Shown: positions 1-61,349 of the stretch, one piece after another | Position numbering within the stretch: the first letter of the stretch is position 1 | Layout: every line of letters starts with the position of its first letter | Origin: a virus | DNA: 64,000 nt | IMG/VR virus record: IMGVR_UViG_3300006802_000076 | Span: 1 to 64,000 of that record | Direction: 5' to 3' (one strand) | Made by a program: the position numbers and the translations under genes | Notes under the pieces: model-generated | Databases searched by the model: none | What the model was told of the DNA's origin: nothing | The model's input: the letters and a program-made list of their open reading frames with translations, nothing else

Positions 1-6
1 GGCACG

Positions 7-36
7 AAAAAAGCCCGGGGGCCGAAGCCCCCGGGC
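7..36 (-). terminator. Intrinsic terminator of the last array cassette
   Basis: A GC-rich hairpin (arms GCCCGGGGGC and GCCCCCGGGC with a UUCG-type loop on the minus strand, 13-36) is followed on the minus strand by six T residues (7-12). It is the only terminator hairpin of the array with a clear U-tract, which fits the end of the array or of its last transcription unit. Confidence 0.85.
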
Positions 37-45
37 GATTCCCGG

Positions 46-279
46 TCAGTAGTTCCTGGCCGTCAGGTATCGGGCACCTTCCAGGTCGGTCCCGATCGGG
101 AACCGGACTTCGTGGTCGGTGGCCGTTTCCTGCCAGTACCGGATCGTGACGATCGCCTCGCCGTCGACGATCCGGATCGAAACGTCGATGTCCTCTTCGA
201 CGGTGGTGATGTCGAAGTCGTCGTCGTCGGGATGCCAGGTCAGTCGGATCGTTCCGACTGACAGGTCGATGTCTTGCAT
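46..279 (-). CDS. Array cassette 1: small acidic protein, unknown function
   Basis: A 77-residue acidic protein with no family I recognise. It looks rich in beta-strand (alternating hydrophobic residues in DIDLSVGTIRLTWH and in the repeated DVSIRIVDGEAIVTIRYW stretch) with a DDDD patch near residue 20. The start at 279 is chosen because AGGAGGGGAC lies just upstream; a longer reading frame extends into the promoter and hairpin region and is not credible. Codons end mostly in C or G, unlike the AT-rich phage body. It is the last cassette of the array and is followed by a true U-tract terminator. Function unknown; expression from its own promoter is inferred. Confidence 0.75.
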   Translation of the reverse strand: MQDIDLSVGTIRLTWHPDDDDFDITTVEEDIDVSIRIVDGEAIVTIRYWQETATDHEVRFPIGTDLEGARYLTARNY

Positions 280-331
280 TGCGTCCCCTCCTGGGAGTCG
301 TGCAGGGAGTGGATTCCCCCTGACAAAGACC

Positions 332-460
332 ACCTTAGCAGGTGGGACAGAATACGTGCGAAACCTACAGGATCGCGTACCCTGTTGGACTGGCGTGCAA
401 GCTACACGCTTCGCTGCTTGCCCGCCAGTCGGCGGGTGGAAGAGAGATATGTGTGAAAGT
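332..460 (-). repeat. Array intergenic module, copy 1 (promoter, motifs, large hairpin)
   Basis: In minus-strand order: motif 2 (444-460, plus-strand GAGATATGTGTGAAAGT); a large hairpin (388-430) with 15-nt arms and one mismatch; motif 1 (350-364, plus-strand GAATACGTGCGAAAC); and an extended -10 TGCTAAGGT (TAAGGT at 332-337). Just downstream, 303-322 folds into a 7-bp leader hairpin in front of the SD of cassette 1. Motif 1 overlaps where the -35 element would lie. Confidence 0.75.
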
Positions 461-495
461 TGAGTTGGGATAAGTCGTAATGTGTCTGGTGTTGT

Positions 496-519
496 GCCCC
501 GGGGCCGAAGCCCCGGGGC
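496..519 (-). terminator. GC-rich terminator-like hairpin after cassette 2
   Basis: Perfect inverted repeat GCCCCGGGGC / GCCCCGGGGC around a TTCG-type loop, 7 nt after the stop codon of cassette 2. There is no U-tract, so it may be an actinobacterial-style terminator or an mRNA 3'-end stabiliser. Confidence 0.65.
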
Positions 520-526
520 CACACCG

Positions 527-733
527 TCACGCCTCCATCGTGGTCTTGGCCATGGTGAAGATGGTTCCCCACTCGTCAACCTTGACGAGGCAGATGATGC
601 CGGAGTACCCAGAGATGGCGGCGGCGTTCACCGCCGCCCCGTAGGCCATGATGGCCTCCCTTTCCTCCGTCGTGCCGACGAAGTGGGCAGTGTTGCCCAC
701 TCCGTTGTGGAACCGGTGCTGGATTGCGTACAT
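527..733 (-). CDS. Array cassette 2: small protein, unknown function
   Basis: A 68-residue protein of unknown family. The central part is Ala/Gly-rich and hydrophobic (AAVNAAAISGYSGIICLVKV, about residues 33-52) and could form a beta-alpha core or a weak membrane segment. The start at 733 follows GGAGGATC with normal spacing. It sits between its own promoter module (781-907) and terminator-like hairpin (496-519). Its GC-rich codon use matches the other cassettes. It shares no obvious sequence with its neighbours, so the array looks like different small genes in identical regulatory packaging. Confidence 0.75.
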   Translation of the reverse strand: MYAIQHRFHNGVGNTAHFVGTTEEREAIMAYGAAVNAAAISGYSGIICLVKVDEWGTIFTMAKTTMEA

Positions 734-780
734 GATCCTCCAATCATGCTTGCGGCGAGCCTCTCCCGCCGACAGATGTA

Positions 781-907
781 ACCTTAGCACATGAGACAGA
801 ATGCGTGCGAAACTTGCAGGCTCGCGTACCCTGTCAGACTGGCGTGCGATTTTGTTGCACCGCACCGCACGCCAGTCGGTCGGTGTGTGAGAGATATGTG
901 TGAAAGT
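781..907 (-). repeat. Array intergenic module, copy 2
   Basis: Motif 2 at 891-907, large hairpin at 837-877 with perfect 12-bp arms (GACTGGCGTGCG / CGCACGCCAGTC), motif 1 at 799-813 (one base different from copy 1), extended -10 TGTGCTAAGGT with TAAGGT at 781-786. The leader hairpin at 753-771 (CGGCG / CGCCG) has a different sequence from copies 1, 3 and 6 but the same position and shape. Confidence 0.75.
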
Positions 908-940
908 TGTAGGGATGATGAGAGTAATGTGTTTGGTGGT

Positions 941-967
941 GGCCCCGGGGCATGTCGCCCCGGGGCC
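941..967 (-). terminator. Hairpin after micro-ORF A
   Basis: GGCCCCGGGGC and GCCCCGGGGCC around a short loop, 6 nt past the stop of the 11-residue micro-ORF at 974-1009. No U-tract. Confidence 0.6.
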
Positions 968-973
968 GGTGTG

Positions 974-1009
974 TCACCCGATCAATGCTCGGAGTATGAT
1001 TCCTAGCAT
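974..1009 (-). CDS. Micro-ORF A, 11 residues (MLGIILRALIG)
   Basis: ATG is preceded by AAAGGAGGTGAC, essentially a perfect anti-SD match with ideal spacing. The peptide MLGIILRALIG is very close to micro-ORF B at 2045-2080 (MIGIILRALFM): same length, same IILRAL core, same SD and same flanking hairpins. It lies between the hairpin ending cassette 3 and another hairpin. Its hydrophobic shape with one Arg would suit a tiny membrane-active peptide or a leader whose translation controls the downstream hairpin; neither is shown. Confidence 0.6.
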   Translation of the reverse strand: MLGIILRALIG

Positions 1010-1031
1010 GTCACCTCCTTTCGGTAGTGGC

Positions 1032-1057
1032 GACCCCGGGGTCACGACCCCGGGGTC
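1032..1057 (-). terminator. Double palindrome after cassette 3
   Basis: Two copies of the palindrome GACCCCGGGGTC separated by two bases, forming a long GC-rich hairpin 6 nt after the stop of cassette 3 and about 10 nt before the SD of micro-ORF A. The micro-ORF would be translated only from read-through transcripts or from an unseen start. Confidence 0.6.
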
Positions 1058-1063
1058 ACACGG

Positions 1064-1237
1064 TCACCGACCGCCGAACTGCTCGTTCAGTTCGTCGGTG
1101 TAGGCCCACTCCCACTCCCGGCACTTGCGGCACTTCCAGTTCGGGTTCTTGATGTAGGAACCCTTGCCCGTAGCCCGGGCGGACTCCGTTGCGATGATGT
1201 CGAACCGGCCTTCATGGTTCAGAACGATGTGGAACAT
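1064..1237 (-). CDS. Array cassette 3: small protein with CxxC, unknown function
   Basis: A 57-residue protein. Residues about 36-39 form a single CRKC pair within a basic-aromatic stretch (NPNWKCRKCREWEWAY). One CxxC could be half of a zinc site completed by a dimer partner. The start at 1237 follows GGGAGGGGAC; an upstream in-frame extension runs into the promoter region. Codons are GC-rich. It is followed by a double palindrome and then by micro-ORF A, so the two may share a transcript. No family recognised. Confidence 0.7.
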   Translation of the reverse strand: MFHIVLNHEGRFDIIATESARATGKGSYIKNPNWKCRKCREWEWAYTDELNEQFGGR

Positions 1238-1286
1238 GTCCCCTCCCAGGGAGTCGTGCAGGGAGCGAATCCCCCTGACAGACACA

Positions 1287-1415
1287 ACCCTAGCACGTCG
1301 GTGAGAATACGTGCGAAACCTGGCAGTCAACCCTACCTGATCGACGGGCGTGCGATGTATCGCTTCGCCTCATCGCACGCCCGTCTTGGGGCGTGTGAAG
1401 GATATGTGTGAAAGT
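1287..1415 (-). repeat. Array intergenic module, copy 3
   Basis: Motif 2 at 1400-1415, large hairpin at 1343-1385 with a perfect 15-bp stem (GACGGGCGTGCGATG and its complement), motif 1 at 1305-1319, extended -10 CGTGCTAGGGT (TAGGGT at 1287-1292). Leader hairpin at 1259-1277 (7 bp with one G-U pair), directly before the SD of cassette 3. Confidence 0.78.
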
Positions 1416-1450
1416 CGGAGTGGTGATGGAGGTAATGTGCCTGGTGTTGT

Positions 1451-1474
1451 GCCCCGGGGCCGAAGCCCCGGGGC
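1451..1474 (-). terminator. GC-rich terminator-like hairpin after cassette 4
   Basis: Same GCCCCGGGGC / TTCG / GCCCCGGGGC hairpin as at 496-519, 7 nt after the stop of cassette 4. Confidence 0.65.
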
Positions 1475-1480
1475 ACCCGG

Positions 1481-1804
1481 TCAGTAGCCCCCGGCGGTGA
1501 TGATGTCGACCCTCTGCAGGGCCTCCATCACGGCCGGATCGGTCGGCGCCGGAATCCCGACCTCCACGGCCAGGTCGATCGCCCTGGCCAGCATCCCGGC
1601 ATACTGACTGGCCACGTCGAACCAGTCAAGGTGGTCACCTGGACGCTCGCCCTGGACGAACGGGTCGAGCGCCGACATTGCGACCAGAGCGGCCTCGTAG
1701 CTGCTCTGGAAGGTCGGCCGAACCTCGTGGTCGGAATGGTCGATCAGGTGACCGATGATGGTCACAATCTGATCTAGGAGATGGAAACAGGTCAAGGTGT
1801 GCAT
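1481..1804 (-). CDS. Array cassette 4: 107-residue helical protein, unknown function
   Basis: The largest cassette of the array. It is predicted mostly helical: a hydrophobic N-terminal helix (residues 1-22, TCFHLLDQIVTIIGHLIDH), a central helix (about 33-48) and a C-terminal pair including MLARAIDLAVEVGI. It might be a small alpha-helical dimer; I recognise no family. The start at 1804 is preceded by GGGAGGGTATC. The leader contains a perfect 7-bp hairpin (1826-1844) different in sequence from those of other cassettes. GC-rich codon use as in its neighbours. Confidence 0.78.
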   Translation of the reverse strand: MHTLTCFHLLDQIVTIIGHLIDHSDHEVRPTFQSSYEAALVAMSALDPFVQGERPGDHLDWFDVASQYAGMLARAIDLAVEVGIPAPTDPAVMEALQRVDIITAGGY

Positions 1805-1848
1805 GATACCCTCCCAGGTCGCACCGTCGGGGACGTTCCCCGACACGA

Positions 1849-1980
1849 CCCATATACACATATGGCTTGAGATACGTGCGAAACCTGACATGTTGGCACA
1901 CCGTAAAGGCTGGTGTGCAAGCTGCACGCTTCGCTGCTTGCCCACCAGCCGGTCGGTGTGTGAGAGATATGTGTGAAAGT
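1849..1980 (-). repeat. Array intergenic module, copy 4
   Basis: Motif 2 at 1964-1980, large hairpin at 1908-1950 (GGCTGGTGTGCAAGC against GCTTGCCCACCAGCC, one mismatch), motif 1 at 1869-1884, and a less typical -10 (TATGGG at 1849-1854). Compared with copy 1, the stem has changed G-C to G-T/A-type positions on both arms, keeping the pairing. Confidence 0.72.
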
Positions 1981-2013
1981 GGTAGGGTTGAATGATGTAA
2001 TGTGTTTGGTGTT

Positions 2014-2039
2014 GGCCCCGGGTCCGAAGACCCGGGGCC
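2014..2039 (-). terminator. Hairpin after micro-ORF B
   Basis: GGCCCCGGGTC / GACCCGGGGCC around CGAA, 5 nt after the stop of micro-ORF B. Compared with 941-967 the stem has compensating changes. Confidence 0.6.
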
Positions 2040-2044
2040 GGTCA

Positions 2045-2080
2045 TCACATGAACAGTGCTCTGAGTATGATGCCGATCAT
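2045..2080 (-). CDS. Micro-ORF B, 11 residues (MIGIILRALFM)
   Basis: Paralogue of micro-ORF A at 974-1009, with identical length, the IILRAL core and the same AAAGGAGGTGA SD with ideal spacing. It is again placed between two GC-rich hairpins downstream of a cassette (2177-2335). Substitutions are confined to residues 2, 10 and 11, all conservative or hydrophobic. Two independent copies with matching SD sites make chance unlikely. Confidence 0.62.
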   Translation of the reverse strand: MIGIILRALFM

Positions 2081-2105
2081 GTTCACCTCCTTTCGGTCGG
2101 TGGGT

Positions 2106-2131
2106 GACCCCGGGGCGGATGCCCCGGGGTC
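2106..2131 (-). terminator. Hairpin between cassette 5 and micro-ORF B
   Basis: GACCCCGGGGC / GCCCCGGGGTC around GGAT-type loop, about 45 nt after the stop of cassette 5 and upstream of the micro-ORF SD. Confidence 0.6.
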
Positions 2132-2176
2132 GGTTGGGGGATTCTGTTGCCACGCTCCCCGCAAGCGCCGATCCTC

Positions 2177-2335
2177 TCAGTCGTGCCGGTAGATCCAGGC
2201 CAAGTCGCTCTGGATGGCGATGTCATCATCGCTGTCCCGATCGACCTTGCTGCCTGCCCAGTCCTGCCAGCAGATGTCCTGCTGGCGTCGGACGAGGTCC
2301 TGCTCGTCCCGGCGCTGGCGCTCCTGTCGTGTCAT
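2177..2335 (-). CDS. Array cassette 5: 52-residue charged protein, unknown function
   Basis: A short reading frame with a very good start: AAGGAGGTGAGAC directly precedes the ATG at 2335. The protein is strongly charged: a basic/glutamine helix at residues 1-20 (RQERQRRDEQDLVRRQQD), one Cys, then an acidic run (DRDSDDD, residues 32-38) and a hydrophobic tail ending WIYRHD. It could be a nucleic-acid mimic or a small host-takeover protein; that is speculation. Unlike the other cassettes, its leader has no hairpin and a stronger SD, so it may be expressed constitutively. Confidence 0.65.
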   Translation of the reverse strand: MTRQERQRRDEQDLVRRQQDICWQDWAGSKVDRDSDDDIAIQSDLAWIYRHD

Positions 2336-2358
2336 GTCTCACCTCCTTCCATGCCTTC

Positions 2359-2487
2359 AATCTAGCACGTCGTCCCGAATACGTGCGAAACATGCCAGAC
2401 AGACACATCACAAGAGCTGGTGTGCAAGCTGCACGCTTCGCTGCTTGCCCACCAGTCGGATCACAAGAGAAAGATATATACGAAAGT
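2359..2487 (-). repeat. Array intergenic module, copy 5
   Basis: Degenerate motif 2 at 2471-2487 (AAGATATATACGAAAGT), large hairpin at 2417-2455 (CTGGTGTGCAAGC / GCTTGCCCACCAG), motif 1 at 2377-2391, extended -10 CGTGCTAGATT with TAGATT at 2359-2364. Loop sequence is the same as in copies 1 and 4. Confidence 0.72.
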
Positions 2488-2522
2488 TGGGTTGGGAGTA
2501 CAAGTAATGTGTCTGGTGTTGT

Positions 2523-2546
2523 GCCCCGGGGCCGAAGCCCCGGGGC
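2523..2546 (-). terminator. GC-rich terminator-like hairpin after cassette 6
   Basis: Same hairpin as at 496-519 and 1451-1474, 6 nt after the stop of cassette 6. Confidence 0.65.
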
Positions 2547-2552
2547 ACCCGG

Positions 2553-2765
2553 TCACCCGATGACCAGGGTGCGCATCGGGCGCACCGTGGCCATCTCATC
2601 GATGAAGACGAGCTTCAACTCGCCGTGGAACCTGTCCGAACCGATCGCCTGCTGGATGTAGTGGCTGGCGATTTCGGCGAGCTTTTCGTAGGCTTGCCTG
2701 TCTCCCTCCACATTGATGTTGACTCCGTACTCCGAAGCGTCGGTGATGATCTGGATGACGTACAT
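2553..2765 (-). CDS. Array cassette 6: 70-residue protein, unknown function
   Basis: First cassette of the array in transcription order. It looks like a small alpha/beta protein: strand MYVIQIITDA, strand YGVNINVEG, helix DRQAYEKLAEIASHYIQQAIG (about 22-42), strand ELKLVFIDE. No family recognised. The start at 2765 follows GGGAGGGAAC. The leader has a perfect 7-bp hairpin with loop ATTCG at 2786-2804, just before the SD. GC-rich codons, as throughout the array. Confidence 0.77.
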   Translation of the reverse strand: MYVIQIITDASEYGVNINVEGDRQAYEKLAEIASHYIQQAIGSDRFHGELKLVFIDEMATVRPMRTLVIG

Positions 2766-2813
2766 GTTCCCTCCCAGGGAGCCTGCAGGGAGCGAATCTC
2801 CCTGACAGATGTA

Positions 2814-2912
2814 ACCTTACCACGTTGTCCAGAATACGTGCGAAACCTGCCAGTCCATGCACCCACAATCGCGGGCGTACGAGTTGCACGCTTCGCTTCT
2901 CGTACGCCCGCG
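2814..2912 (-). repeat. Array intergenic module, copy 6 (outermost, incomplete)
   Basis: Large hairpin at 2870-2912 with a perfect 14-bp stem (CGCGGGCGTACGAG and complement) of almost wholly different sequence from the other copies but with the same loop core (TGCACGCTTCGCT). Motif 1 at 2832-2846, extended -10 CGTGGTAAGGT (TAAGGT 2814-2819). Motif 2 is absent, so this copy marks the upstream edge of the array. Confidence 0.75.
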
Positions 2913-2940
2913 AGACAAGTCTGGGATTGACCGTGGGTGA

Positions 2941-3169
2941 CAGAGGATGCGCGCCGCGGAAGAATTCACTGGTTGCCTTCTTCGGCTGTGTATTCAATTT
3001 TTGTGGGGGTTGGTTTGGGGGGTTGGGGGTGGGGTTGGGGGTGGGGTTTTGTATGGTTGGGGGTGGCGTGGGATTGGGCTGGTTTGTGGGGGGTTGTGTG
3101 TGGGGTTGTGTTGGGGTTTGTGTTGGGTTGTGTGGGTTTTTTTGTGGGGGGTGGGGTGTTTGTCGGGGT
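2941..3169. other. Gene-free G/T-rich patch between array and methyltransferase
   Basis: From about 2995 the plus strand is almost entirely G and T with many runs of four to six G, capable of quadruplex formation. Plus-strand reading frames here give only Gly/Trp/Val/Cys low complexity and are not credible. The composition switches abruptly from the GC-balanced array at about 2945-2990. The patch lies just past the stop of the minus-strand methyltransferase gene. Confidence 0.7.
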
Positions 3170-3706
3170 TTATGGTTTTATTTGGTATACGCCGATTGTG
3201 GGGGTTGTGTGGTGGGTTATGGTTGTGTTGGGGGTTAGGGTTGTCAGCATTTCTATCATTTCTTGGTGTGTCCAGTCGTCTTTGATGTGGTTTTGGTAGG
3301 GGTTTGTGTGGTCGTGTTGTGGCCAGTGTGTGATTGGTATGCTGATGAATAGGGTTTGTGTGTGGGGGAGGAGTTTTTGTATGACTTGTTCGGCTTCTGG
3401 CCGGGTCATGTGTTCTAGTATGTCTCCACAGTATGTTATGGTGTATTCCTGGCCGGGTTCCCATTTTCTCACGTCTTCGTTGATGATAACATCATATTTT
3501 TCGTAGAGTCGATATTGTTTGATGTATGGTTCCCATACTTCAATGCCTGTCCATCTGCCTCTATGAATTTTCCGGGTTATAATTTCCCAGTACGTTCCTT
3601 TTCCACATCCTACATCTAAAAATTCTGTTTGTTGATGATATTGTTCAACATGTTTTTTTGTTTGTTCAATTATCCATTGTTTTCCTTCGTGTGATGAGTT
3701 AGGCAT
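3170..3706 (-). CDS. Class I SAM-dependent methyltransferase
   Basis: A 178-residue protein with the Rossmann methyltransferase signature: motif I FLDVGCGKGTY (about residues 25-35), the acidic residue after strand 2 in WTGIEVWEPY, motif II-like VIINEDVRKW, and ITYCGDILEHM as the post-II motif. Substrate unknown: DNA base, small molecule or protein are all open. The start at 3706 is preferred because its ATG overlaps the stop of the upstream gene (AATGCCTAA); a longer frame adds a Cys-rich tandem-repeat tail but begins at a weak TTG. The C-terminal part is loaded with His, Thr, Pro and Gln because its codons end in C or A, the complement of the plus-strand G/T bias. Last gene of the minus operon. 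Confidence 0.8.
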   Translation of the reverse strand: MPNSSHEGKQWIIEQTKKHVEQYHQQTEFLDVGCGKGTYWEIITRKIHRGRWTGIEVWEPYIKQYRLYEKYDVIINEDVRKWEPGQEYTITYCGDILEHMTRPEAEQVIQKLLPHTQTLFISIPITHWPQHDHTNPYQNHIKDDWTHQEMIEMLTTLTPNTTITHHTTPTIGVYQIKP

Positions 3707-4337
3707 TGTTCCATGTTGTTCCTGCTGTTTGCATCGGTCGCATCTGTGGTGTTGGTTGCATCGGTCGCATTGTTCGCATTGATCGCATTGGTAGTAAAAA
3801 TTTACGGTTGCCAAGCTGGTCTTTGGTGAGCCACATTGTTGCGATTGCGCTGTATCCGATGATGTCTACGAGTGTATCGTTAAGACTTTCTTGTGGTACT
3901 GCGTTGATGTTTATCGCTGTGTTGAAGCTATCGGTTTTTTGTGTCATGTTTTCTAGTCTGGCGATCTTGTCGTTGACCCGAATGAGCAACCCGATGATCC
4001 CAAATTCTGAGATGTTCTTTGGACCATAATCCTTTTGTTTCATGGTGAGGATATCAAGCATGTTTTGTGCTGTGAATCTGGTCCCGGTTGAGTTTAACAG
4101 TCTAAGGCTGTGTGAGGCTAGGAATTGCCAAAACCCGGCTTGTGATGCCATCTTCGACATGTGACTGTAGTCGTATTCTCTGTTTTCGTCGGTTTTCAGG
4201 GTACTACCGATCTTCAGCCGCATATATCGGATGAGTTGATCTGGTTCCTCTAGACCTGAAATAACGGCCCTGTCGAACAGGGCGCTGATTGCTTCTTCTG
4301 CTGCGTCTTCCCATGTTTCACTTGTAGATTGATTCAT
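3699..4337 (-). CDS. Nucleotide-modification-associated (DUF1599-like) protein
   Basis: A 212-residue protein. The central part (about residues 95-175) has the pattern TMKQKDYGPKNI, then GIIGLLIRVNDKIARLENM, then ESLNDTLVDIIGYSAIA, which matches the nucleotide-modification-associated domain 1 family (DUF1599), common in phages and proposed to act on modified nucleotides. The C-terminus is a Met/Arg/Pro/Gln repeat (MRSMRTMRPMQ type) made by a tandem nucleotide repeat. The start at 4337 is chosen for AAGGA 9 nt upstream. It overlaps the upstream gene by 20 nt and the methyltransferase ATG by 8 nt, so translation is probably coupled. The pairing with a methyltransferase hints at nucleotide or DNA modification (inference). 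Confidence 0.72.
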   Translation of the reverse strand: MNQSTSETWEDAAEEAISALFDRAVISGLEEPDQLIRYMRLKIGSTLKTDENREYDYSHMSKMASQAGFWQFLASHSLRLLNSTGTRFTAQNMLDILTMKQKDYGPKNISEFGIIGLLIRVNDKIARLENMTQKTDSFNTAININAVPQESLNDTLVDIIGYSAIATMWLTKDQLGNRKFLLPMRSMRTMRPMQPTPQMRPMQTAGTTWNNA

Positions 4338-4671
4338 TTTCCATTTCCTTAATGAGAGTTGATTTGATAAAAGCTCTGATTGCTGCATCGATTATTTCTT
4401 TAGATACTGAAGGGTCTAGTGAGGCGATCATGTCGCCTTGTTCATCTACAATATCTATTTGATCGTATACTAATGTTTTTCTGTTGCTTTCTAGGCCTTT
4501 AATTAGATATTTAAGTTCTATATTGTCTTCCCGCAAATCTTTTAGTTCATTAACTACATCCATAAAAGTTGCGACATCAATAACAATTTGATCTTTTGCA
4601 ACAAAAAGATCATCTTCTGTTTGAGCTTCCATAAGCTCTAAAAGATGATCTTCTATGTAGTCACTTTCCAT
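4318..4671 (-). CDS. Acidic coiled-coil-like protein, unknown function
   Basis: A 118-residue acidic protein, mostly helical with heptad-like stretches (VVNELKDLREDNIELKYLIKGLE, about residues 36-58) suggesting a coiled coil, then a short strand region (LVYDQIDIVDEQGDMIASLD) and a C-terminal helix. The start at 4671 is preferred because the ATG overlaps the end of the upstream HTH gene and is preceded by GGAAGAAAAGA. No catalytic motif is visible. It lies between an HTH protein and the DUF1599-like protein. Confidence 0.68.
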   Translation of the reverse strand: MESDYIEDHLLELMEAQTEDDLFVAKDQIVIDVATFMDVVNELKDLREDNIELKYLIKGLESNRKTLVYDQIDIVDEQGDMIASLDPSVSKEIIDAAIRAFIKSTLIKEMENESIYK

Positions 4672-5098
4672 TCTTTTCTTCCATCCTCTTCTTGTATGCG
4701 TCAATGATCATATATTGACCCCGGCCTTCCTTCTTGAGCCAACCCGGCTGGTCTTTAATAAATTTGTAGATAGTAGGAAGACTCACACCGCAAAGATCAG
4801 CAATGTCTTTAGTCCCCATGATTTCCCCATCATGCTCTTTCAGAACATCGATAACAGAAAGCTTCTTTGCTGGCCTCTTCTTTTCAATGACAGCTTCTTC
4901 TTCTGGAAGACCGAAGAAGTTCCACCAATACCTGGCATCGTCTACCGATATCTGATAGAAACCACAAATATCTTTAAAGTTCTTGTCATCGAATAGCCCT
5001 GTTGCAATACATAGGCCAGCCCTAGCTTTTTCTGAGCTAATCTTTTTATGATCCTTTACCATCCGGCAAAGGCGCTCTTTTTCCTGAAAACTTATCAT
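4661..5098 (-). CDS. Helix-turn-helix DNA-binding protein
   Basis: A 145-residue basic protein. Residues about 88-120 (IMGTKDIADLCGVSLPTIYKFIKDQPGWL) read as a helix-turn-helix with recognition helix SLPTIYKFI, followed by a wing-like GRGQYMIID strand. The N-terminal half (DICGFYQISVDDARYWWNFFGLP) looks like a second HTH, as in small phage terminase subunits or two-headed regulators. It could regulate the divergent promoter region at 7997-8150, or be a small terminase subunit; the absence of a large subunit nearby argues weakly against the latter. Its 5' end overlaps the upstream gene by 53 nt. Confidence 0.65.
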   Translation of the reverse strand: MISFQEKERLCRMVKDHKKISSEKARAGLCIATGLFDDKNFKDICGFYQISVDDARYWWNFFGLPEEEAVIEKKRPAKKLSVIDVLKEHDGEIMGTKDIADLCGVSLPTIYKFIKDQPGWLKKEGRGQYMIIDAYKKRMEEKNGK

Positions 5099-5357
5099 AA
5101 TTAAATTTCCCCTTGGATAGAAGTCTTCTCTTTACAACACAGTTTTTTAAGACGGCGGTCCCGCCAGAGCATACGTCTGTGCCGAAGTCAAAATTAGATG
5201 CGACATAATAATAGTCATCATCTTCGTTAACGAGATACCCGACTGCCGAAAGGATTCGAACGCCTGGCATTTCGGTGACATCATACCACAGATCCCCGAT
5301 GGAGTAGTGGTCCTTCCAAAATAATTCGACAACGGGGTAAAAGATTTCTTTAGTCAT
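5046..5357 (-). CDS. Small conserved phage protein, unknown function
   Basis: A 103-residue protein whose pattern (a tryptophan-containing strand ELFWKDHYSIGDLW, then VRILSAVGYLVNEDDDYYYVASN, then LKNCVVKRRLL) resembles a family of small beta-rich proteins common in phages with no assigned role. The start at 5357 has no strong SD. Its leader contains the long inverted repeat 5366-5421 and a likely promoter at 5430-5438, so it can be expressed independently of the upstream genes. A DVCSGGT stretch near residue 60 has one Cys. Confidence 0.68.
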   Translation of the reverse strand: MTKEIFYPVVELFWKDHYSIGDLWYDVTEMPGVRILSAVGYLVNEDDDYYYVASNFDFGTDVCSGGTAVLKNCVVKRRLLSKGKFNYDKFSGKRAPLPDGKGS

Positions 5358-5365
5358 AATAAAGA

Positions 5366-5421
5366 GGGGAACCCCCTCGCTATAAATAATCTTTCGAAAT
5401 ATCTACAGCCGGGGGTTCCCC
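5366..5421 (-). repeat. Inverted repeat in the leader of the 5046-5357 gene
   Basis: GGGGAACCCCC at 5366-5376 is the exact complement of GGGGGTTCCCC at 5411-5421, with a 34-nt A/T-rich loop. In the RNA it would form a stem at the very 5' end of a transcript started from the -10 at 5430-5435. It may stabilise the 5' end, terminate the upstream gene, or serve as a protein-binding site. Confidence 0.6.
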
Positions 5422-5429
5422 ATAAGCTT

Positions 5430-5438
5430 ATTATACCA
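5430..5438 (-). promoter_or_regulatory. Extended -10 promoter, minus strand
   Basis: TGGTATAAT on the minus strand (TATAAT at 5430-5435). The predicted start site falls at about 5423, immediately before the inverted repeat 5366-5421. No convincing -35 was found. Confidence 0.55.
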
Positions 5439-5444
5439 GTAAAA

Positions 5445-5762
5445 TTAGCTATCTTTGTCTAAATGCCATTCAATATGATTGCCGAGCCTGTCATCAATTT
5501 TTTCGACTCTATCATCAACTCTTTCAACTTTTCTCTCAACAGCAGTTACTGCTTTCAGTATAGACTTTCGGTCATAATCCGCATCAGCTTCGAATCTTTC
5601 TAGAATCTTGTGAGTTTCTTCAGCGACTGATTTGTTCACTTGATGCTGTACTGTATTTTCTTCACGAAGCTTTTTTACTTCTTTTTTTGGAAGTAATGCT
5701 ATGACAACAAGACCTGTTGCTGAGATAAGAGCTACTATTATTGATGTCCAATCAATAAGCAC
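5445..5762 (-). CDS. Membrane-anchored coiled-coil protein (holin-like, DUF2746-type)
   Basis: A 105-residue protein with one N-terminal transmembrane segment (about residues 6-24, TSIIVALISATGLVVIALL) followed by a lysine-rich turn and a long charged coiled coil (30-95, with VERKVERVDDRVEKIDDRL). This architecture resembles the small membrane proteins with coiled-coil tails listed as putative holins in mycobacteriophages (DUF2746). GTG start at 5762, 7 nt after the upstream stop. It may help membrane disruption or anchor a complex; a second holin candidate lies at 54837-55034. Confidence 0.65.
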   Translation of the reverse strand: MLIDWTSIIVALISATGLVVIALLPKKEVKKLREENTVQHQVNKSVAEETHKILERFEADADYDRKSILKAVTAVERKVERVDDRVEKIDDRLGNHIEWHLDKDS

Positions 5763-5768
5763 TTCTTA

Positions 5769-6329
5769 TCAACCAAAAATCTGATTGACAATATCCTCTA
5801 CTGACTTTTCAAAGTCTCCGTATTCTGCGACGTGGTCATTGAGGATACTGATCAAATCTGCTTTCTTTACTGGGTCTAGTGGTACTGTTGTTGGAGCTGG
5901 GGCACTGGATGTTCCTTCTCCTGTTGTTGCCCCTCCTGCACCGCCAGCGCTAGGTGCTGGCTTTTGTTCGGGGTTAAGAGGAACTTGAATCATAGCTTTT
6001 TCAAGTTCTTCTGACTGCTGCTTGTGCCATTCTGCAGCATCTTGATGCTGCTTGGCCATGTTTTCGTTCCATGACTTCATTTGGTCATGATGCGCTTTCA
6101 TGACCTGAACATTGTCATATGACAAATTAATGATCATTTTTATCTCCTTTTTATTATCGCGATACTTTTCAGTCCAGCCGCCAGCTCTGGCAGCTCTTTC
6201 TTGCTGAATAGCTTTATCTCTTGCTGCTTTTCTGGAGGCAGAATCTCCGGATGTGTATGTATAACACTTACCGGAATCTCCAAACCTATATCCTGGCTTC
6301 CCACCCTCTGAGCACGGTCCAACTGGCAT
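5769..6329 (-). CDS. Gly-Lys-Cys-Tyr motif phage protein with internal start
   Basis: A 186-residue protein in two parts. The N-terminal part (1-50) has the pattern GGKPGYRFGDSGKCYTY followed by a basic helix, a motif I recall from phage structural or assembly proteins of unknown role. The second part (66-186) is a Gln/Glu/His-rich helix, then a Pro/Ala/Gly linker (PAPSAGGAGGATTGEG region) and an acidic C-terminal helix. Inside the gene, AAGGAGATAAAA lies just before an in-frame ATG at 6135-6137, ideal for internal initiation, so a shorter 122-residue product is likely. Function unknown. Confidence 0.7.
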   Translation of the reverse strand: MPVGPCSEGGKPGYRFGDSGKCYTYTSGDSASRKAARDKAIQQERAARAGGWTEKYRDNKKEIKMIINLSYDNVQVMKAHHDQMKSWNENMAKQHQDAAEWHKQQSEELEKAMIQVPLNPEQKPAPSAGGAGGATTGEGTSSAPAPTTVPLDPVKKADLISILNDHVAEYGDFEKSVEDIVNQIFG

Positions 6330-6350
6330 AGTGTATATTATACTATCAGA

Positions 6351-6638
6351 TTATCGATAATAAGCATACAAGTCTTCACGGCTCCATCTCCTAACCGGAA
6401 TGGACACGTTGTTGAATTCTTTGAATGCATCATCGCATGAGTAATAGATTTTTGCATATCCAAGTCTTGATCCTTCATCATAGGACTTACAAGATGGATT
6501 TGGATCTAAATATAGTGCTTTAAATATATATTGATCTTTTTGATTGTGAATAGCATTCACAAGCTTCATATCGTGTCCGCAAAACGGACAACTCTTTTTG
6601 GGATATGGGAATTTGTCTATAATTTTGCCTAGAATCAT
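6351..6638 (-). CDS. Small zinc-ribbon-like protein (Lar family-like)
   Basis: A 95-residue protein starting with a hydrophobic turn and then CPFCGH (residues 17-22). Further on CKSYDEGSRLGYAKIYYSC supplies two more cysteines, giving a plausible Cys4 zinc ribbon. The CPFCG...C...C spacing resembles small restriction-alleviation (Lar-like) proteins, but this is only a family-level resemblance. The ATG overlaps the stop of the upstream gene (ATGA), implying coupled translation. Confidence 0.65.
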   Translation of the reverse strand: MILGKIIDKFPYPKKSCPFCGHDMKLVNAIHNQKDQYIFKALYLDPNPSCKSYDEGSRLGYAKIYYSCDDAFKEFNNVSIPVRRWSREDLYAYYR

Positions 6639-6940
6639 TCTGAGTCATCATCCTCATCGTCCACATCAAACTCAAAAAACATCCCTTCAGGGAGATTATC
6701 TGGATCTATCATTTTTGGACTTATTAAAAAGTTTATCATCTGATCGACTTGCTTTGAAACTATCTCAAGACCGTCCATCAATGAGTTGAGTTCATCAAGA
6801 GTAATAATATAATCTTCACTTGAGGTGTTGATTACACATGCTGGTACATAGGAATCTTCAAAAGGAATTGATTTGATTACAATTGTTATTGTTGGGAATG
6901 AATCAATTTCTTCATCACTGGAATAAGGGACTATTCTCAT
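6635..6940 (-). CDS. Small acidic protein, unknown function
   Basis: A 101-residue very acidic protein ending in FEFDVDDEDDDSE. The middle (IIITLDELNSLMDGLEIVSKQVDQMINFLIS region) is helical. The highly acidic tail would suit a DNA mimic or a protein-binding tail. The start at 6940 (ATG) is preferred over a TTG nine bases upstream; AAAGGA lies about 11 nt before it. Overlaps both neighbours by a few codons, so it is part of the ThyX operon. Confidence 0.62.
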   Translation of the reverse strand: MRIVPYSSDEEIDSFPTITIVIKSIPFEDSYVPACVINTSSEDYIITLDELNSLMDGLEIVSKQVDQMINFLISPKMIDPDNLPEGMFFEFDVDDEDDDSE

Positions 6941-7310
6941 CGTAATCAAATCCTTTCTCGCTCAAAACAAAATTTTCAAAGTATCTAACAATTGTTTCTT
7001 TGTATATTTTTAGCAACCATTCTTTATCTCTATTAGATCTTTTGCCAAAAAAGAATGTAAGAATGTATTCTTCTTTATCAAGTTTCAGAATATCATCAAG
7101 CTTAAGCTCTTTATAAGGCCTAATACCGGCCCTTTTGAAATTAATTTTTGTATATCTATAGATATGCTCCGGATATTTGATGATATGTATCCGACTTTTT
7201 GTCAAAGTGGCAATAAATTTAACAATATACTCATACGGAATGTAGTCATCTGCAAGAATTACTACATTTTTGTCTTCTAGGAGCCTGCCAATATCTTGCT
7301 CATTGCTCAT
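6915..7310 (-). CDS. Alpha/beta protein of the ThyX operon, unknown function
   Basis: A 131-residue protein with alternating strands and helices (KNVVILADDYIPYEYIVKFIATL, then RIHIIKYPEHIY, then YILTFFFGKRSN), like a small Rossmann-type fold. No nucleotide-binding signature can be named. It overlaps the end of thyX by 4 nt (ATGA), so its translation is probably coupled to ThyX. A role in nucleotide metabolism is suggested only by position. Confidence 0.68.
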   Translation of the reverse strand: MSNEQDIGRLLEDKNVVILADDYIPYEYIVKFIATLTKSRIHIIKYPEHIYRYTKINFKRAGIRPYKELKLDDILKLDKEEYILTFFFGKRSNRDKEWLLKIYKETIVRYFENFVLSEKGFDYDENSPLFQ

Positions 7311-7996
7311 AAAGCCTCTCTACCGTTGTCTCTAAACAATTTTAGCGCAACAGGAGCAATGGATTCAGCAAATTCTTCAATAGCTTTAGCAAATTCTCGA
7401 ATTTCTAGCTGAGCATGAGAGTCATTCCTAAGCGATAGGAAATTTAGAAGACTTCTTAGATTAACTGTCCATACAAATTCTGTGTATTGACCAACAGGAA
7501 GAACTGATCTGGCAATTTCTTTTGCGACACCTGCATCTAAAAGGTCATAATATGCAGATTCTGCCACAGAATAAACATCACTCATCAAACCTTGAATAAA
7601 TGATACTGTTGTTTGATCGGTAATTGGTTCAAAAGAGTAATTTCCTGGCTTACCTACTTGTTTACGCATTGAATCATATTCTGGAATATAAAACTCTAGC
7701 TCATCTGGTACATAATATCTCATACTCATCTCGTTAAAAGATGACCATCTATGTCTAAACCACTCTCTCGCCACAAAAATTGGGCATTTTACATAAAACT
7801 TGTATGTAACATGCTCAAATGGAGTGGCGTGCTTATTCTTCATCAAAAAATTGATGAGTCCTTCAGCGCGCTCATCCATTTCGGACTGGTAGCTAGAAAA
7901 GCTAACTCTTGCAGCATTAACAATATCTAAATCTCCACCCATTGCATCAATTAAATCAACTTTTCCATGATCTAGAACTTTAATCCCTAATGTCAT
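7307..7996 (-). CDS. thyX: FAD-dependent thymidylate synthase ThyX
   Basis: Flavin-dependent thymidylate synthase, making dTMP from dUMP with methylene-tetrahydrofolate and NAD(P)H. The 229-residue length is normal. The family signature RHRxxSxNExSxRY is intact as RHRWSSFNEMSMRY (about residues 82-95). Upstream, HATPFEH is the typical folate/FAD region. Near the C-terminus, NLRSLLNFLSLR supplies the conserved Arg and hydrophobic core. First gene of the minus operon. The -10 element (8004-8009) lies only 7 nt before the ATG and no SD is present, so the mRNA is probably leaderless. Fits an actinobacterial phage with its own dNTP supply. Confidence 0.95.
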   Translation of the reverse strand: MTLGIKVLDHGKVDLIDAMGGDLDIVNAARVSFSSYQSEMDERAEGLINFLMKNKHATPFEHVTYKFYVKCPIFVAREWFRHRWSSFNEMSMRYYVPDELEFYIPEYDSMRKQVGKPGNYSFEPITDQTTVSFIQGLMSDVYSVAESAYYDLLDAGVAKEIARSVLPVGQYTEFVWTVNLRSLLNFLSLRNDSHAQLEIREFAKAIEEFAESIAPVALKLFRDNGREAL

Positions 7997-8150
7997 GGGA
8001 AGCAGTCTACACGGGATTTCGCTGAAGATCGTCAGATCAAAAGATTTTTTCAGGGGATTTGCATCTTTTTCTTTTTAGTCGTGTATACTTCGCAAGCGAA
8101 GCGCGCGATAAGCTTATAGACGTGTAACTGTTTAGGGGTTAAAATATAAT
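7997..8150. promoter_or_regulatory. Divergent promoter region
   Basis: The intergenic control region between the minus operon (thyX) and the plus-strand genes. Leftward -10 TAGACT (8004-8009, preceded by TG); rightward -10 TATACT (8084-8089, preceded by GTG). Around the rightward start site lie a tight hairpin CTTCGCAAGCGAAG (8088-8101) and a palindrome ATAAGCTTAT (8108-8117), both possible operators. The first plus-strand ATG follows at 8151. Confidence 0.6.
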
Positions 8151-8375
8151 ATGAAAGTAATTGCAATAGTAGAATCTGACGACTACAGCGGAGCAGCAAT
8201 AGTAGATCCTTCATTCATTACTGTCGTCCAAGTTGATGACACATATTTTGCTGCATCAAGATGCCTATTTAGCGAAAGAGGTGTCACATGCGAAATATCT
8301 GAATCTGATGCTCTTGCGCTTGTTAGTCGCGGTGTAGAATTAATTTCTACAGATTCGCTAACAGGTAACCAATGA
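8151..8375 (+). CDS. Small protein, unknown function
   Basis: A 74-residue protein with a beta-rich N-terminal half (KVIAIVESDDYSGAAIVDPSFITVVQVDDTYFAAS) and a short acidic helix (EISESDALALVSRG). No family recognised. Its stop overlaps the start of the glycosyltransferase (ATGA), so the two are coupled and may act together. A weak SD (AGGGG) lies 12 nt before the ATG. Confidence 0.65.
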   Translation: MKVIAIVESDDYSGAAIVDPSFITVVQVDDTYFAASRCLFSERGVTCEISESDALALVSRGVELISTDSLTGNQ

Positions 8376-9379
8376 AAAAAATAAGCTGGTTTACTCCTCA
8401 ATCAAACGATTTATCAGGCGAGCAGTGGTATTCGCCTGGATATCAGAATGCTGCAATAGCAAACATAAAAGAACTAAATGCAATGCACGTCGCGGTTTAT
8501 TACAATAAACCGGAAATTCCATATCATATTAATTTCTGCCAGCCCGTGTACTATCAGCATAATAATGACTATGTAGTTGGCTACACACCGTGGGAAAGTA
8601 CTGTTGTGCCTAGTAGCTGGCTATATAATATGTCTTTATGTGATGAAATATGGACTACATCTAACTTCGTAAAAGATGTGTTTTCTAACTACAACGTGAA
8701 CAATAACATTCACGTTATTCATCATGGTGCGTCTCCAGAGTTTACTATTCTAGATAGAGAAATTACAGACAAGTTTAATTTTTTGCATGTTGGTGGTGAG
8801 TCTCTTAGAAAGAATTCTCAGATGGTTGTTGATGCATTCTTGGATTTATTCGATGGCAATAAAGATTATAGACTTATTCTAAAATATAATAATAAGAGCA
8901 ATGCAAAAGTAAGAATGAATAATGAACTTGTAGATGCCAGTAAGCATCCACAGATTGTATGTTTAGAACATTCTTTAAATACTCAAGATCTTATTGAACT
9001 TTATCATAAATCACATTGTATGATTTATCCGACTAAAGGTGAAGGGTTTGGTATGATACCCTTTGAAGCTATAGCTACAGGTATGCCAACTATTGTGACT
9101 AATGCAACAGGTACAGCAGATTTTGCTGAAATGTCATTTGCATTAAATGCTGAGATGGCGGAAGCAAAAGAGCAATCTGAATATTATGGGGTAGACACCG
9201 GCCTGTGGGCTTACCCAAGCTATGATCATCTCCTTGAACTTATGCGTCAGGTGGTAGATGATTATGATGCGGCAAAAAGAAAAACGATCCAGTCCGCAAA
9301 AATCATTCACGATTCGTGGAGATGGACGGATTCCGCTGCTAAGATCTATGATCGGTATCAAGATTTTGTCGGCTTCTAG
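8372..9379 (+). CDS. Glycosyltransferase, GT-B fold (GT4-like)
   Basis: A 335-residue protein. The C-terminal half shows the retaining GT4 nucleotide-sugar region: FNFLHVGGESLRKN, then LILKYN, then the acceptor/donor motif EGFGMIPFEAIATGMPTIVT (about residues 225-244), where the two Glu residues are the E-x7-E pair. The N-terminal half holds the acceptor domain (VGYTPWES, DEIWTTSNFVKDVF). It would transfer a sugar from a nucleotide donor; the target could be modified phage DNA, a virion protein or the host surface. Translationally coupled to the small upstream gene. Confidence 0.85.
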   Translation: MKKISWFTPQSNDLSGEQWYSPGYQNAAIANIKELNAMHVAVYYNKPEIPYHINFCQPVYYQHNNDYVVGYTPWESTVVPSSWLYNMSLCDEIWTTSNFVKDVFSNYNVNNNIHVIHHGASPEFTILDREITDKFNFLHVGGESLRKNSQMVVDAFLDLFDGNKDYRLILKYNNKSNAKVRMNNELVDASKHPQIVCLEHSLNTQDLIELYHKSHCMIYPTKGEGFGMIPFEAIATGMPTIVTNATGTADFAEMSFALNAEMAEAKEQSEYYGVDTGLWAYPSYDHLLELMRQVVDDYDAAKRKTIQSAKIIHDSWRWTDSAAKIYDRYQDFVGF

Positions 9380-9474
9380 TTTTTACTAATAGTCAATAAT
9401 TATCCTAGTCAATTTTTAGTGTTGAAAGTTTTTGATACTGTTATGATTGAAGTCTATTATTTTTAGGAGGCAGA

Positions 9475-24955: not shown

Positions 24956-25222
24956 ATGAATTATTTCACTTGGATAAGTCAAGAGGCATTTGATAACTGG
25001 CATCAGACTGTTGTGGAAGGATTAAATTTACCACGTATAGGTGTCAATTCTGCTACCGGAGAGCTTGCTCCGGACAAACAGCACACTACTGCGTATACAT
25101 CTGTTTTGGAAGTCTCTGCTGATGACTGGCGCGCTCCGGTGGAGTCAGATATTGCAGCTGCGTATTCGGATGGGCTGGGTGCGCCGTGTGATCCGCCACC
25201 ATCGTTAGATCTATACGAATAG
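24956..25222 (+). CDS. Small protein between fibre genes, unknown function
   Basis: An 88-residue protein with several Trp (YFTWISQEAFDNWHQTVV, VSADDWRAP) and an acidic C-terminus ending PPPSLDLYE. Likely a small chaperone or connector for the next, very large adhesin. A GGGATAGGATT stretch is the probable SD for the ATG at 24956. Confidence 0.6.
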   Translation: MNYFTWISQEAFDNWHQTVVEGLNLPRIGVNSATGELAPDKQHTTAYTSVLEVSADDWRAPVESDIAAAYSDGLGAPCDPPPSLDLYE

Positions 25223-25237
25223 TATTGGAAGGATGTT

Positions 25238-60624: not shown

Positions 60625-61142
60625 ACATATGTCTTGATATTGATGGTGTAATCGCTGATATTGCTGGTGGTATCAACAGGAAATTAGATAAGCTAGGTGT
60701 TGAAAATTATGACTATGCACATTGGCTTATTGGATTGTCGGATGACAACCTTTATCCAACTGTATTCAGTGATTACAATTTCTGGAGAAATCTAAAACCT
60801 TTTACTGATGCATGGTATGCTGTCAATGGATGGTGGGAGAGGGGTTACGATGTTCATCTGATTACCGCTAGATCTTCTCCTGAGTCTATGAATACAGCAT
60901 TCTCTTGGCTGGAGGATTGGAGGTTTCAATATTCATCTCTTCATTTTGTTGAGATGGGCAAAAAGATTGAAACTGTTAAAGATCTGAATGGGGATATTTT
61001 TGTTGAAGATAATCCATATGAGTTGAAAATTGTACAAGATGCCGGTGTGAGGTGTTTTCTTCGTCGGGCTTGGTATAATAGTCCTCATTGGGAATCTTTT
61101 GATTCGATTTCTAGCTTGTTGGAGGTTGATTTAGGTGAGTGA
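60621..61142 (+). CDS. HAD-like 5'(3')-deoxyribonucleotidase-type phosphatase
   Basis: A 173-residue HAD protein. Motif I DIDGVIADI (residues 5-13) with the two Asp; motif II LITARSSP; later KKIETVKDLNGDIFVEDNPYELKIV with motif III Lys and motif IV ED. This matches small phage HAD enzymes such as deoxyribonucleotidases or the 3'-phosphatase of polynucleotide kinase. Fits nucleotide salvage or end repair. SD AAGGAG, overlap with the upstream TGA. Confidence 0.8.
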   Translation: MNICLDIDGVIADIAGGINRKLDKLGVENYDYAHWLIGLSDDNLYPTVFSDYNFWRNLKPFTDAWYAVNGWWERGYDVHLITARSSPESMNTAFSWLEDWRFQYSSLHFVEMGKKIETVKDLNGDIFVEDNPYELKIVQDAGVRCFLRRAWYNSPHWESFDSISSLLEVDLGE

Positions 61143-61272
61143 TCGTAGGAAGTATTCTGGTCTTGAGTCTTTAGTTGTTGGTGGTGTGCCTGCTGTTTGC
61201 ACTTTTCTTTATGATTGGCGGCTTGGTGTGGCTTGGTTGTGTTTTGCCTTGATTGCCGGTTCCAGCCGTTGA
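61135..61272 (+). CDS. 45-residue membrane protein before DnaE
   Basis: GTG overlapping the upstream stop (GGTGAGTGA). Hydrophobic from about residue 12 to 41 (SLVVGGVPAVCTFLYDW, LGVAWLCFALIAG) with few charges, giving one or two membrane segments. Function unknown. The C-rich to G/T-rich change in codon use starts here. Confidence 0.55.
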   Translation: MSDRRKYSGLESLVVGGVPAVCTFLYDWRLGVAWLCFALIAGSSR

Positions 61273-61349
61273 TGGCCGCGCGCCCTTTGATTGGGTTTTA
61301 AAATTTTTTACTATCCGTTTGTTGTGTTTGTTGTGTTTGGGGTGTTTTT

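What the first reader, a model, noticed from the sequence alone, without database searches (positions are those of the whole stretch)
1..2940. Array of six small gene cassettes with identical regulatory packaging
Six unrelated short ORFs, all on the minus strand, are each preceded by the same promoter type, most by a leader hairpin, and followed by a GC-rich terminator hairpin. Between them lies a conserved module with two motifs flanking a large hairpin. The genes differ but the packaging is the same, and codon use is GC-rich unlike the phage body. This looks like a modular unit in which small genes can be swapped, loosely like the start-associated sequence systems of cluster K mycobacteriophages or an integron-like cassette array. 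It could be a bank of host-takeover or anti-defence genes.
Basis: partly seen in the sequence, partly recalled or inferred. Interest (0 to 1): 0.85.

Follow-up and report, generated by a model that had tools for sequence, protein, structure and literature searches.

The report
Swappable early-gene array of an actinophage
One end of this uncultured virus carries at least thirteen tiny, mostly unknown genes, each with its own start signal, RNA leader, stop signal and a shared control element; relatives keep this packaging but carry different genes, so it looks like an exchangeable kit for taking over the host cell.

Summary
The window opens inside the array. An overlapping 99.9%-identical contig (G001) bridges both ends of the 94.5-kb record: a circular map of about 99 kb with 13 single-gene units on one strand, 6 of them in the window.

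Each unit has a terminator hairpin, motif 2, a covarying hairpin, motif 1 exactly 95 bp from motif 2 (10 of 12), TANNNT at a fixed distance (12/13), a leader hairpin (12/13) and a Shine-Dalgarno sequence usually inside a second hairpin. GC3 is 84% versus 33% in the body.

The virus is a siphovirus related to Streptomyces cluster BE phages (Stanwilliamsviridae). Relatives have the same plan with different words: CTAACGTTAG, GTAANNTTAC, and TGTCSGGSCCGGACA in NootNoot's 11-kb terminal repeat. Cassettes differ between relatives that share a word; one cassette loss ends in word tracts.

Most likely this is an early, SPO1-like host-takeover region of independent, exchangeable transcription units, with clade-specific operators read by a phage protein (RGRKS-motif proteins are candidates). 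It is not an integron (no recombinase found), and the cluster K SAS motif is absent. Architecture and turnover are shown; early timing, the binding protein and gene functions are inferred.

The parts
46..279 (-). cassette gene 6 of the window (77 aa, MQDIDLSVGTIRLTW..)
   Evidence: ORF with SD AGGAGGGG; no family match
527..733 (-). cassette gene 5 (68 aa, MYAIQHRFHNGVG..)
   Evidence: ORF starting right after the leader hairpin and SD GGAGG
974..1009 (-). micro-ORF MLGIILRALIG between two hairpins
   Evidence: SD AAAGGAGGTGA; 79% identical DNA to 2045-2080; 3 of 6 codon differences silent
1064..1237 (-). cassette gene 4 (57 aa)
   Evidence: ORF, GC3 0.84
1481..1804 (-). cassette gene 3 (107 aa)
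   Evidence: ORF, GC3 0.82
2045..2080 (-). micro-ORF MIGIILRALFM between two hairpins
   Evidence: SD AAAGGAGGTGA
2177..2335 (-). cassette gene 2 (52 aa)
   Evidence: ORF, GC3 0.85
2553..2765 (-). cassette gene 1 (70 aa), first transcribed unit of the array
   Evidence: ORF, GC3 0.86
2832..2846 (-). motif 1 (GTTTCGCACGTATTC); other window copies 2377-2391, 1870-1884, 1305-1319, 799-813, 350-364
2472..2486 (-). motif 2 (CTTTCRYAYATATCT); other copies 1965-1979, 1400-1414, 892-906, 445-459
2415..2457 (-). inter-motif hairpin with GCGNAGC apex; other copies 2870-2912, 1908-1950, 1343-1385, 837-877 (no GCGNAGC), 388-430
   Evidence: covariation; apex in 12/13 modules
2814..2819 (-). -10 element TANNNT; others 2359-2364, 1287-1292, 781-786, 332-337; none at the fixed offset for the 1870 copy
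   Evidence: fixed offset 27 from motif 1 start in 12/13
2763..2809 (-). two-hairpin leader: hairpin near +1, then SD in or beside the loop of a second hairpin
   Evidence: 12/13 units have the first hairpin
2523..2546 (-). terminator hairpin GCCCCGGGGC-TTCG-GCCCCGGGGC; others 2015-2038, 1451-1474, 943-966, 496-519, 13-36
2107..2130 (-). intercistronic hairpin before the micro-ORF; second copy 1031-1057

Best explanation
The region is the leftward early region of a lytic siphovirus related to Streptomyces cluster BE phages: an array of at least 13 independent, single-gene transcription units. Each unit is read by host RNA polymerase from its own TANNNT (often TGn-extended) promoter, gets a structured 5' leader that shields the RNA and presents the Shine-Dalgarno sequence, and stops at its own hairpin. 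The element between units (motif 2, hairpin, motif 1, with motif 1 covering -39 to -25) is an operator set for a trans-acting phage protein that switches or tunes all units together; the word drifts between clades as protein and sites co-evolve, and RGRKS-motif proteins, which sit in every array examined, are the leading candidates. The repeated modules and separate promoters let single cassettes be gained, lost or reordered without disturbing neighbours, so the content turns over as hosts and defences change. Shown: anatomy, covariation, word enrichment, cassette turnover in relatives, shared plan with the BE terminal repeat. Inferred: early timing, the trans-acting protein, product functions, recombination between modules as the route of exchange.
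For: Thirteen units with fixed geometry, covarying hairpin, word enrichment, leaders, terminators. Same plan with different words in relatives: CTAACGTTAG (G024, L154), GTAANNTTAC (G033 and L156-L161, L163); the four near-complete records carrying arrays have 80-82% identical capsid proteins. Cassette turnover. NootNoot's terminal repeat has terminator, palindrome (12 sites against 0.0), TAGACT (14 on the gene strand, 0 on the other) and leader hairpin for each unit, and content differs from MulchMansion. BE phages have about 11-kb terminal repeats with 20-25 mostly unknown genes and an lsr2-like gene (PMC5764925); terminal-repeat GC is raised, 54.4 against 47.0% (PMC8612146); gene content of two BE phages differs chiefly in the repeats (PMC10690885). 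No recombinase or HTH_3 repressor in the record. RGRKS proteins in all arrays.
Against: No expression, binding or phenotype data. Whether this array lies in a terminal repeat cannot be told from the contigs. The RGRKS link to the G001 proteins is weak (E about 1e-3), and binding of the word is a guess; in G024 and G033 the words do not overlap the -35 region, so one mechanism may not fit all. Cassette proteins have no family, so host takeover is by analogy only. G001 is the same virus, not an independent relative.
Confidence: 0.7

Rival explanations
1. The module is first of all a recombination or mobility device: hairpin and motifs are sites for a recombinase or a hairpin-nicking enzyme that moves cassettes, as in integrons or REP/RAYT systems, and regulation is secondary.
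For: Cassette loss with the junction in word tracts, reordering (69), different content behind the same module (123), strongly conserved hairpin (79).
Against: No tyrosine or serine recombinase in the record (117, 118; the record lacks about 4.5 kb of the genome, but that stretch is the array itself as read in G001 and codes for none that was seen); sequence of the stem is free to vary; fixed distance from promoter to motif 1 points to transcription; ordinary homologous recombination between 75-92% identical modules suffices.
Confidence: 0.12
2. The words are stoperators: one-directional sites for an immunity repressor of a temperate phage that silences the array in the prophage.
For: In G001 all 19 sites face one way relative to transcription and are intergenic, as described for cluster A and CA stoperators (PMC13313380); the consensus differs between clades.
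Against: No integrase and no HTH_3 repressor (117, 120); closest isolated relatives (BE) are described as virulent (PMC10690885); sites are confined to the array; in other clades the word is a palindrome without direction.
Confidence: 0.08
3. The inter-motif hairpin is only a second transcription terminator or insulator in RNA, and motifs 1 and 2 are just parts of host-type promoters.
For: It lies between units and folds strongly as RNA.
Against: A separate terminator already precedes it (84); it has no U tract and a different apex (GCGNAGC in 12/13 against UUCG in terminators; 75, 84, 116); motif 2 has no -10 downstream in the gene direction; exact 95-bp spacing is not needed for a terminator.
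Confidence: 0.1

Closest known systems
Direct terminal repeats of Streptomyces cluster BE phages (Stanwilliamsviridae; NootNoot, Paradiddles, MulchMansion)
   Same: Left-end position, leftward small unknown genes, raised GC, per-unit terminator, repeated intergenic palindrome, TANNNT promoter, leader hairpin; related capsid (53-54% aa) and portal (45-47%) proteins; varying gene content.
   Different: Different word; no Lsr2 found here; here a two-motif element with a 43-nt hairpin and a smaller array; terminal repeat status of the new virus unknown. In the papers read, the repeats are described by gene count, not by this packaging.
SPO1 host-takeover module
   Same: Cluster of mostly small early genes with their own strong promoters in a terminal region (PMC6873191).
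   Different: Unrelated phage and host; SPO1 genes lie in operons; no shared covarying element with a clade-specific word is described in the text read.
Start-associated sequences (SAS/ESAS) of cluster K mycobacteriophages
   Same: Repeated short motif plus inverted repeats upstream of a subset of small genes; the inverted-repeat consensus differs by subcluster (PMC3203893).
   Different: The 13-bp SAS sits at the start codon and is absent here; the element here lies upstream of the promoter and comes with a terminator.
Stoperators of cluster A/CA phages
   Same: Short one-directional intergenic sites whose consensus differs between clades.
   Different: No repressor or integrase found; sites confined to one array.
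Integron cassette arrays
   Same: Small exchangeable cassettes separated by hairpin-forming elements.
   Different: No integrase; each unit has its own promoter; no attC core.

Membership tests
Cluster BE-type terminal-repeat early region | Phage related by capsid and portal proteins | tested here: met
   MCP 53-54% and portal 45-47% aa identity to BE phages
Cluster BE-type terminal-repeat early region | Array of small leftward units with terminator, palindrome or hairpin, TANNNT promoter and leader hairpin | tested here: met
Cluster BE-type terminal-repeat early region | Lies in a long direct terminal repeat | not testable with these tools
   needs reads; contigs only show a circular map
Cluster BE-type terminal-repeat early region | lsr2-like gene in the array | tested here: not met
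   no PF11774 match in the record; RGRKS proteins occur instead
Integron | IntI-type tyrosine recombinase | tested here: not met
   no PF00589 match in G000, control genomes ring
Integron | promoterless cassettes read from one Pc promoter | tested here: not met
   promoter-like TANNNT at fixed offset before 12 of 13 genes; by sequence only
Cluster K SAS | 13-bp GGGATAGGAGCCC at start codons | tested here: not met
   9 matches at 3 mismatches against 7.8 expected, none in the array
Stoperator system | one-directional intergenic sites | tested here: met
   19 of 19 on the gene strand
Stoperator system | immunity repressor of a temperate phage | tested here: not met
   no PF01381 and no integrase match; other repressor folds not tested
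SPO1-like host-takeover module | early, high expression and growth-inhibiting products | not testable with these tools
   needs infection transcriptome and expression assays

The most novel reading that the evidence does not exclude
Each phage clade keeps its own regulatory dialect: RGRKS proteins are a new family of phage DNA-binding regulators that recognise the clade's word, so that any gene landing between two word-bearing modules is captured into a coordinately controlled, exchangeable early regulon. In the virus of the window the hairpins, with the d(GCGNAGC) mini-hairpin apex on one strand, may even be read as extruded or single-stranded DNA.
Probability: 0.3. Interest if true: 0.82.

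Novelty: new variant of a known kind. Interest (0 to 1): 0.62.

Why it matters
Early phage genes that disable hosts and defences are hard to find because they are small and unrelated. A recognisable package (terminator, word, hairpin, promoter, leader) that stays while genes change gives a way to collect such genes by their packaging from uncultured phages of this clade. It also offers a testable case of co-evolution between a regulator and dozens of its sites within one phage lineage, and it explains the GC-rich, gene-variable terminal repeats noted in cluster BE phages.

Tried and rejected
N4-type virion RNA polymerase: considered because d(GCGNAGC) hairpins resemble N4 promoters (own knowledge), but the 3644-aa protein matches a tail tape-measure domain (PhageMin_Tail). 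DNA-level relatives: none in phage records. Motif 1 as a 15-mer in viral contigs gives 21 stretches, about what chance allows; motif 2 then hits only the same virus. The word in 50 related records: only scattered near-matches, no cluster; arrays in relatives turned up only after looking for repeats and for the RGRKS family. Relatives by the gene next to the array: only the same virus. RGRKS in bacterial genomes with one member as query: none. RGRKS model: no PDB match below E 0.25; in BFVD one uncharacterised homologue and weak DUF7609 hits. Rfam: nothing reaches a gathering score (best malK-I, 35 bits against 60.3). PADLOC and NCBIfam: nothing significant. Weasels2 and Trina ends: gene layout looks operon-like, not analysed further. 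First count of words inside ORFs in G033 depends on hand-set ORFs and is not used.
Full report
WHAT WAS CHECKED. The six minus-strand ORFs and their repeated flanks are in the sequence as described. The window is bases 1-64000 of a 94,497-base IMG/VR record, G000. A second contig, IMGVR_UViG_3300025889_000395 (G001, 36,271 bases), matches both ends of G000 at 99.9% identity: G000 83828-94497 = G001 1-10669 and G000 1-21062 = G001 15210-36271. The genome therefore has a circular map of about 99.0 kb, and the window opens in the middle of the array. G001 is the same virus, not an independent relative.

ANATOMY. On G001 the array runs from about 18130 down to 11240 and holds 13 copies of motif 1 and 13 of motif 2, with 13 single genes of 52-114 aa. 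In gene direction a unit reads: terminator, motif 2, hairpin, motif 1, -10 element, leader, gene. Motif 2 to motif 1 is 95 bp in 10 of 12 modules, 93 and 94 in the others, although the hairpin sequence varies. TANNNT lies 27 bases from the start of motif 1 in 12 of 13, often preceded by TGn; motif 1 thus spans about -39 to -25 and takes the place of a -35 element (the promoter reading is from sequence only). The hairpin is supported by covariation: 9 of 15 pairs with changes on both sides, 30 such cells against 10.7 in shuffles and 6 or fewer in slid controls. Its apex is GCGNAGC in 12 of 13 modules (12 copies on the gene strand of the array against 1.9 expected). This heptamer family is known as an extraordinarily stable DNA mini-hairpin (PMC4686876). 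Nine terminators of the array instead carry the RNA-type C(UUCG)G loop on 10-bp stems. The leader has a 7-8 bp hairpin in 12 of 13 units, usually followed by a second hairpin holding the Shine-Dalgarno sequence in or next to its loop.

MORE THAN CHANCE. The shared word TTTCRCACRTAT occurs 19 times in the array, always on the gene strand, with 0.0 expected, and not once in the rest of G001. GC3 is 0.84 in array genes against 0.33 in ten body genes.

WHICH PHAGE. The 3644-aa protein has a tape-measure domain; portal, protease, capsid, tail fibre, ribonucleotide reductase, helicase, primase and exonuclease genes were recognised. Capsid protein 53-54% and portal 45-47% identical to Streptomyces cluster BE phages. 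No integrase, resolvase, Lsr2 or HTH_3 gene was found in the record. The host is unknown; an actinobacterium is inferred from the relatives.

RELATIVES. G024 (IMGVR_UViG_3300021962_000060) and G033 (IMGVR_UViG_3300032315_000979) were fetched through the capsid protein and show arrays of small genes with repeated modules, but with other words: CTAACGTTAG type, 50 sites against 0.1 expected, and GTAANNTTAC type, 69 against 0.8. Small proteins with the motif RGRKS occur in all three arrays. A profile made without the G001 members ranks the two G001 proteins first among 1426 ORFs, at E about 1e-3, so the link is likely but weak. A search with this family found nine more contigs, all with word-rich arrays. 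The four near-complete records with arrays have capsid proteins 80-82% identical to the one here.

CASSETTE TURNOVER. L153 and L154 share the word and modules (about 75-82% identical over 100-200 bases) but, apart from RGRKS genes, no detectable cassette gene. L160 lacks a two-gene stretch of about 1.06 kb that lies between word tracts in L159 and L158; the junction in L160 is at words. The small genes MNxYEV, MGxHND and MSYLT differ in order and presence between L158, L159 and L160. Isolated phages agree: NootNoot and MulchMansion terminal-repeat genes correspond in part, with several genes lacking a counterpart on each side, and the literature reports gene-content differences concentrated in the repeats (PMC10690885) and, in cluster CG, repeats of similar length but different content (PMC13325033).

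THE BE TERMINAL REPEAT HAS THE SAME PLAN. NootNoot's repeat is 10,787 bp (PMC5764925). Most of its longer intergenic spaces hold, in order, a terminator, a palindrome TGTCSGGSCCGGACA (12 sites by a strict pattern against 0.0 expected), a promoter with TAGACT (14 on the gene strand, none on the other) and a leader hairpin before the Shine-Dalgarno sequence. Its GC is above the genome average, as published for the cluster (PMC8612146). I found no description of this packaging in the papers read; the library holds only open-licence papers, so this is not proof of novelty.

INTERPRETATION. Independent promoters, stable leaders, own terminators, host-like base composition and variable unknown genes fit a region expressed at once after entry by host polymerase, as in the SPO1 host-takeover module (PMC6873191). 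A word that is constant within a genome, different between clades and tied to a fixed architecture is what regulator-operator co-evolution would leave. RGRKS proteins are candidates because they are the one gene family common to the arrays; Lsr2, which has an RGR AT-hook motif, is part of the BE repeats (PMC8612146). The predicted RGRKS fold (pLDDT 78, pTM 0.59) has a disordered N-terminal arm with RGRKS and a small alpha/beta domain without a clear known match. This part is inference.

LIMITS. No transcripts, no binding data, no reads, no host. The role of the hairpin is open: operator scaffold, insulator or recombination site. The functions of the 13 proteins are unknown: no significant match in PHROGs, Pfam, NCBIfam or PADLOC for those scanned, and no tblastn match in 50,697 phage records.

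Noticed in passing
window 974-1009 and 2045-2080 (-): Two 11-codon ORFs, MLGIILRALIG and MIGIILRALFM, with near-perfect Shine-Dalgarno sequences, each between two hairpins behind unrelated genes; half of the codon differences are silent, which suggests real translation of a hydrophobic micropeptide.
   Followed up: partly
window 2990-3240, 25000-27000 and 61000-64000: Strongly G+T-rich tracts on the + strand (GC skew up to 0.45, AT skew to -0.5), including G-run clusters just upstream of the array's first promoter and two long opposing frames at 61.3-64 kb.
   Followed up: no
L031 (G001) 10100-11240: About 1.1 kb of AT-rich DNA with few ORFs between the array's far end and the rightward genes, with repeated CTATATAGG, ending in an 18-21 bp hairpin with a GAA triloop at 11205-11250; possible origin or genome end (NootNoot has about 0.9 kb without annotated genes at its left end).
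   Followed up: no
L031 11956-12000, 12580-12620, 13205-13255: The far units of the array carry an extra hairpin (CTGGYGTTC..GAACRCCAG) directly behind the terminator in place of the CACATTAC box found in the other units.
   Followed up: no
window 477-484, 924-931, 1432-1439, 1997-2004, 2504-2511 (-): A CACATTAC box at nearly constant distance upstream of motif 2; on the + strand it reads GTAATGTG and could be a -10 of a divergent promoter running into the terminator.
   Followed up: no
L120 (G024) 706-1089 and 2059-2448: Two further array genes on the opposite strand encode proteins that look alike by eye (KVxxxx..AxxRLAVLVALITGxSVxV), outside the RGRKS family.
   Followed up: no
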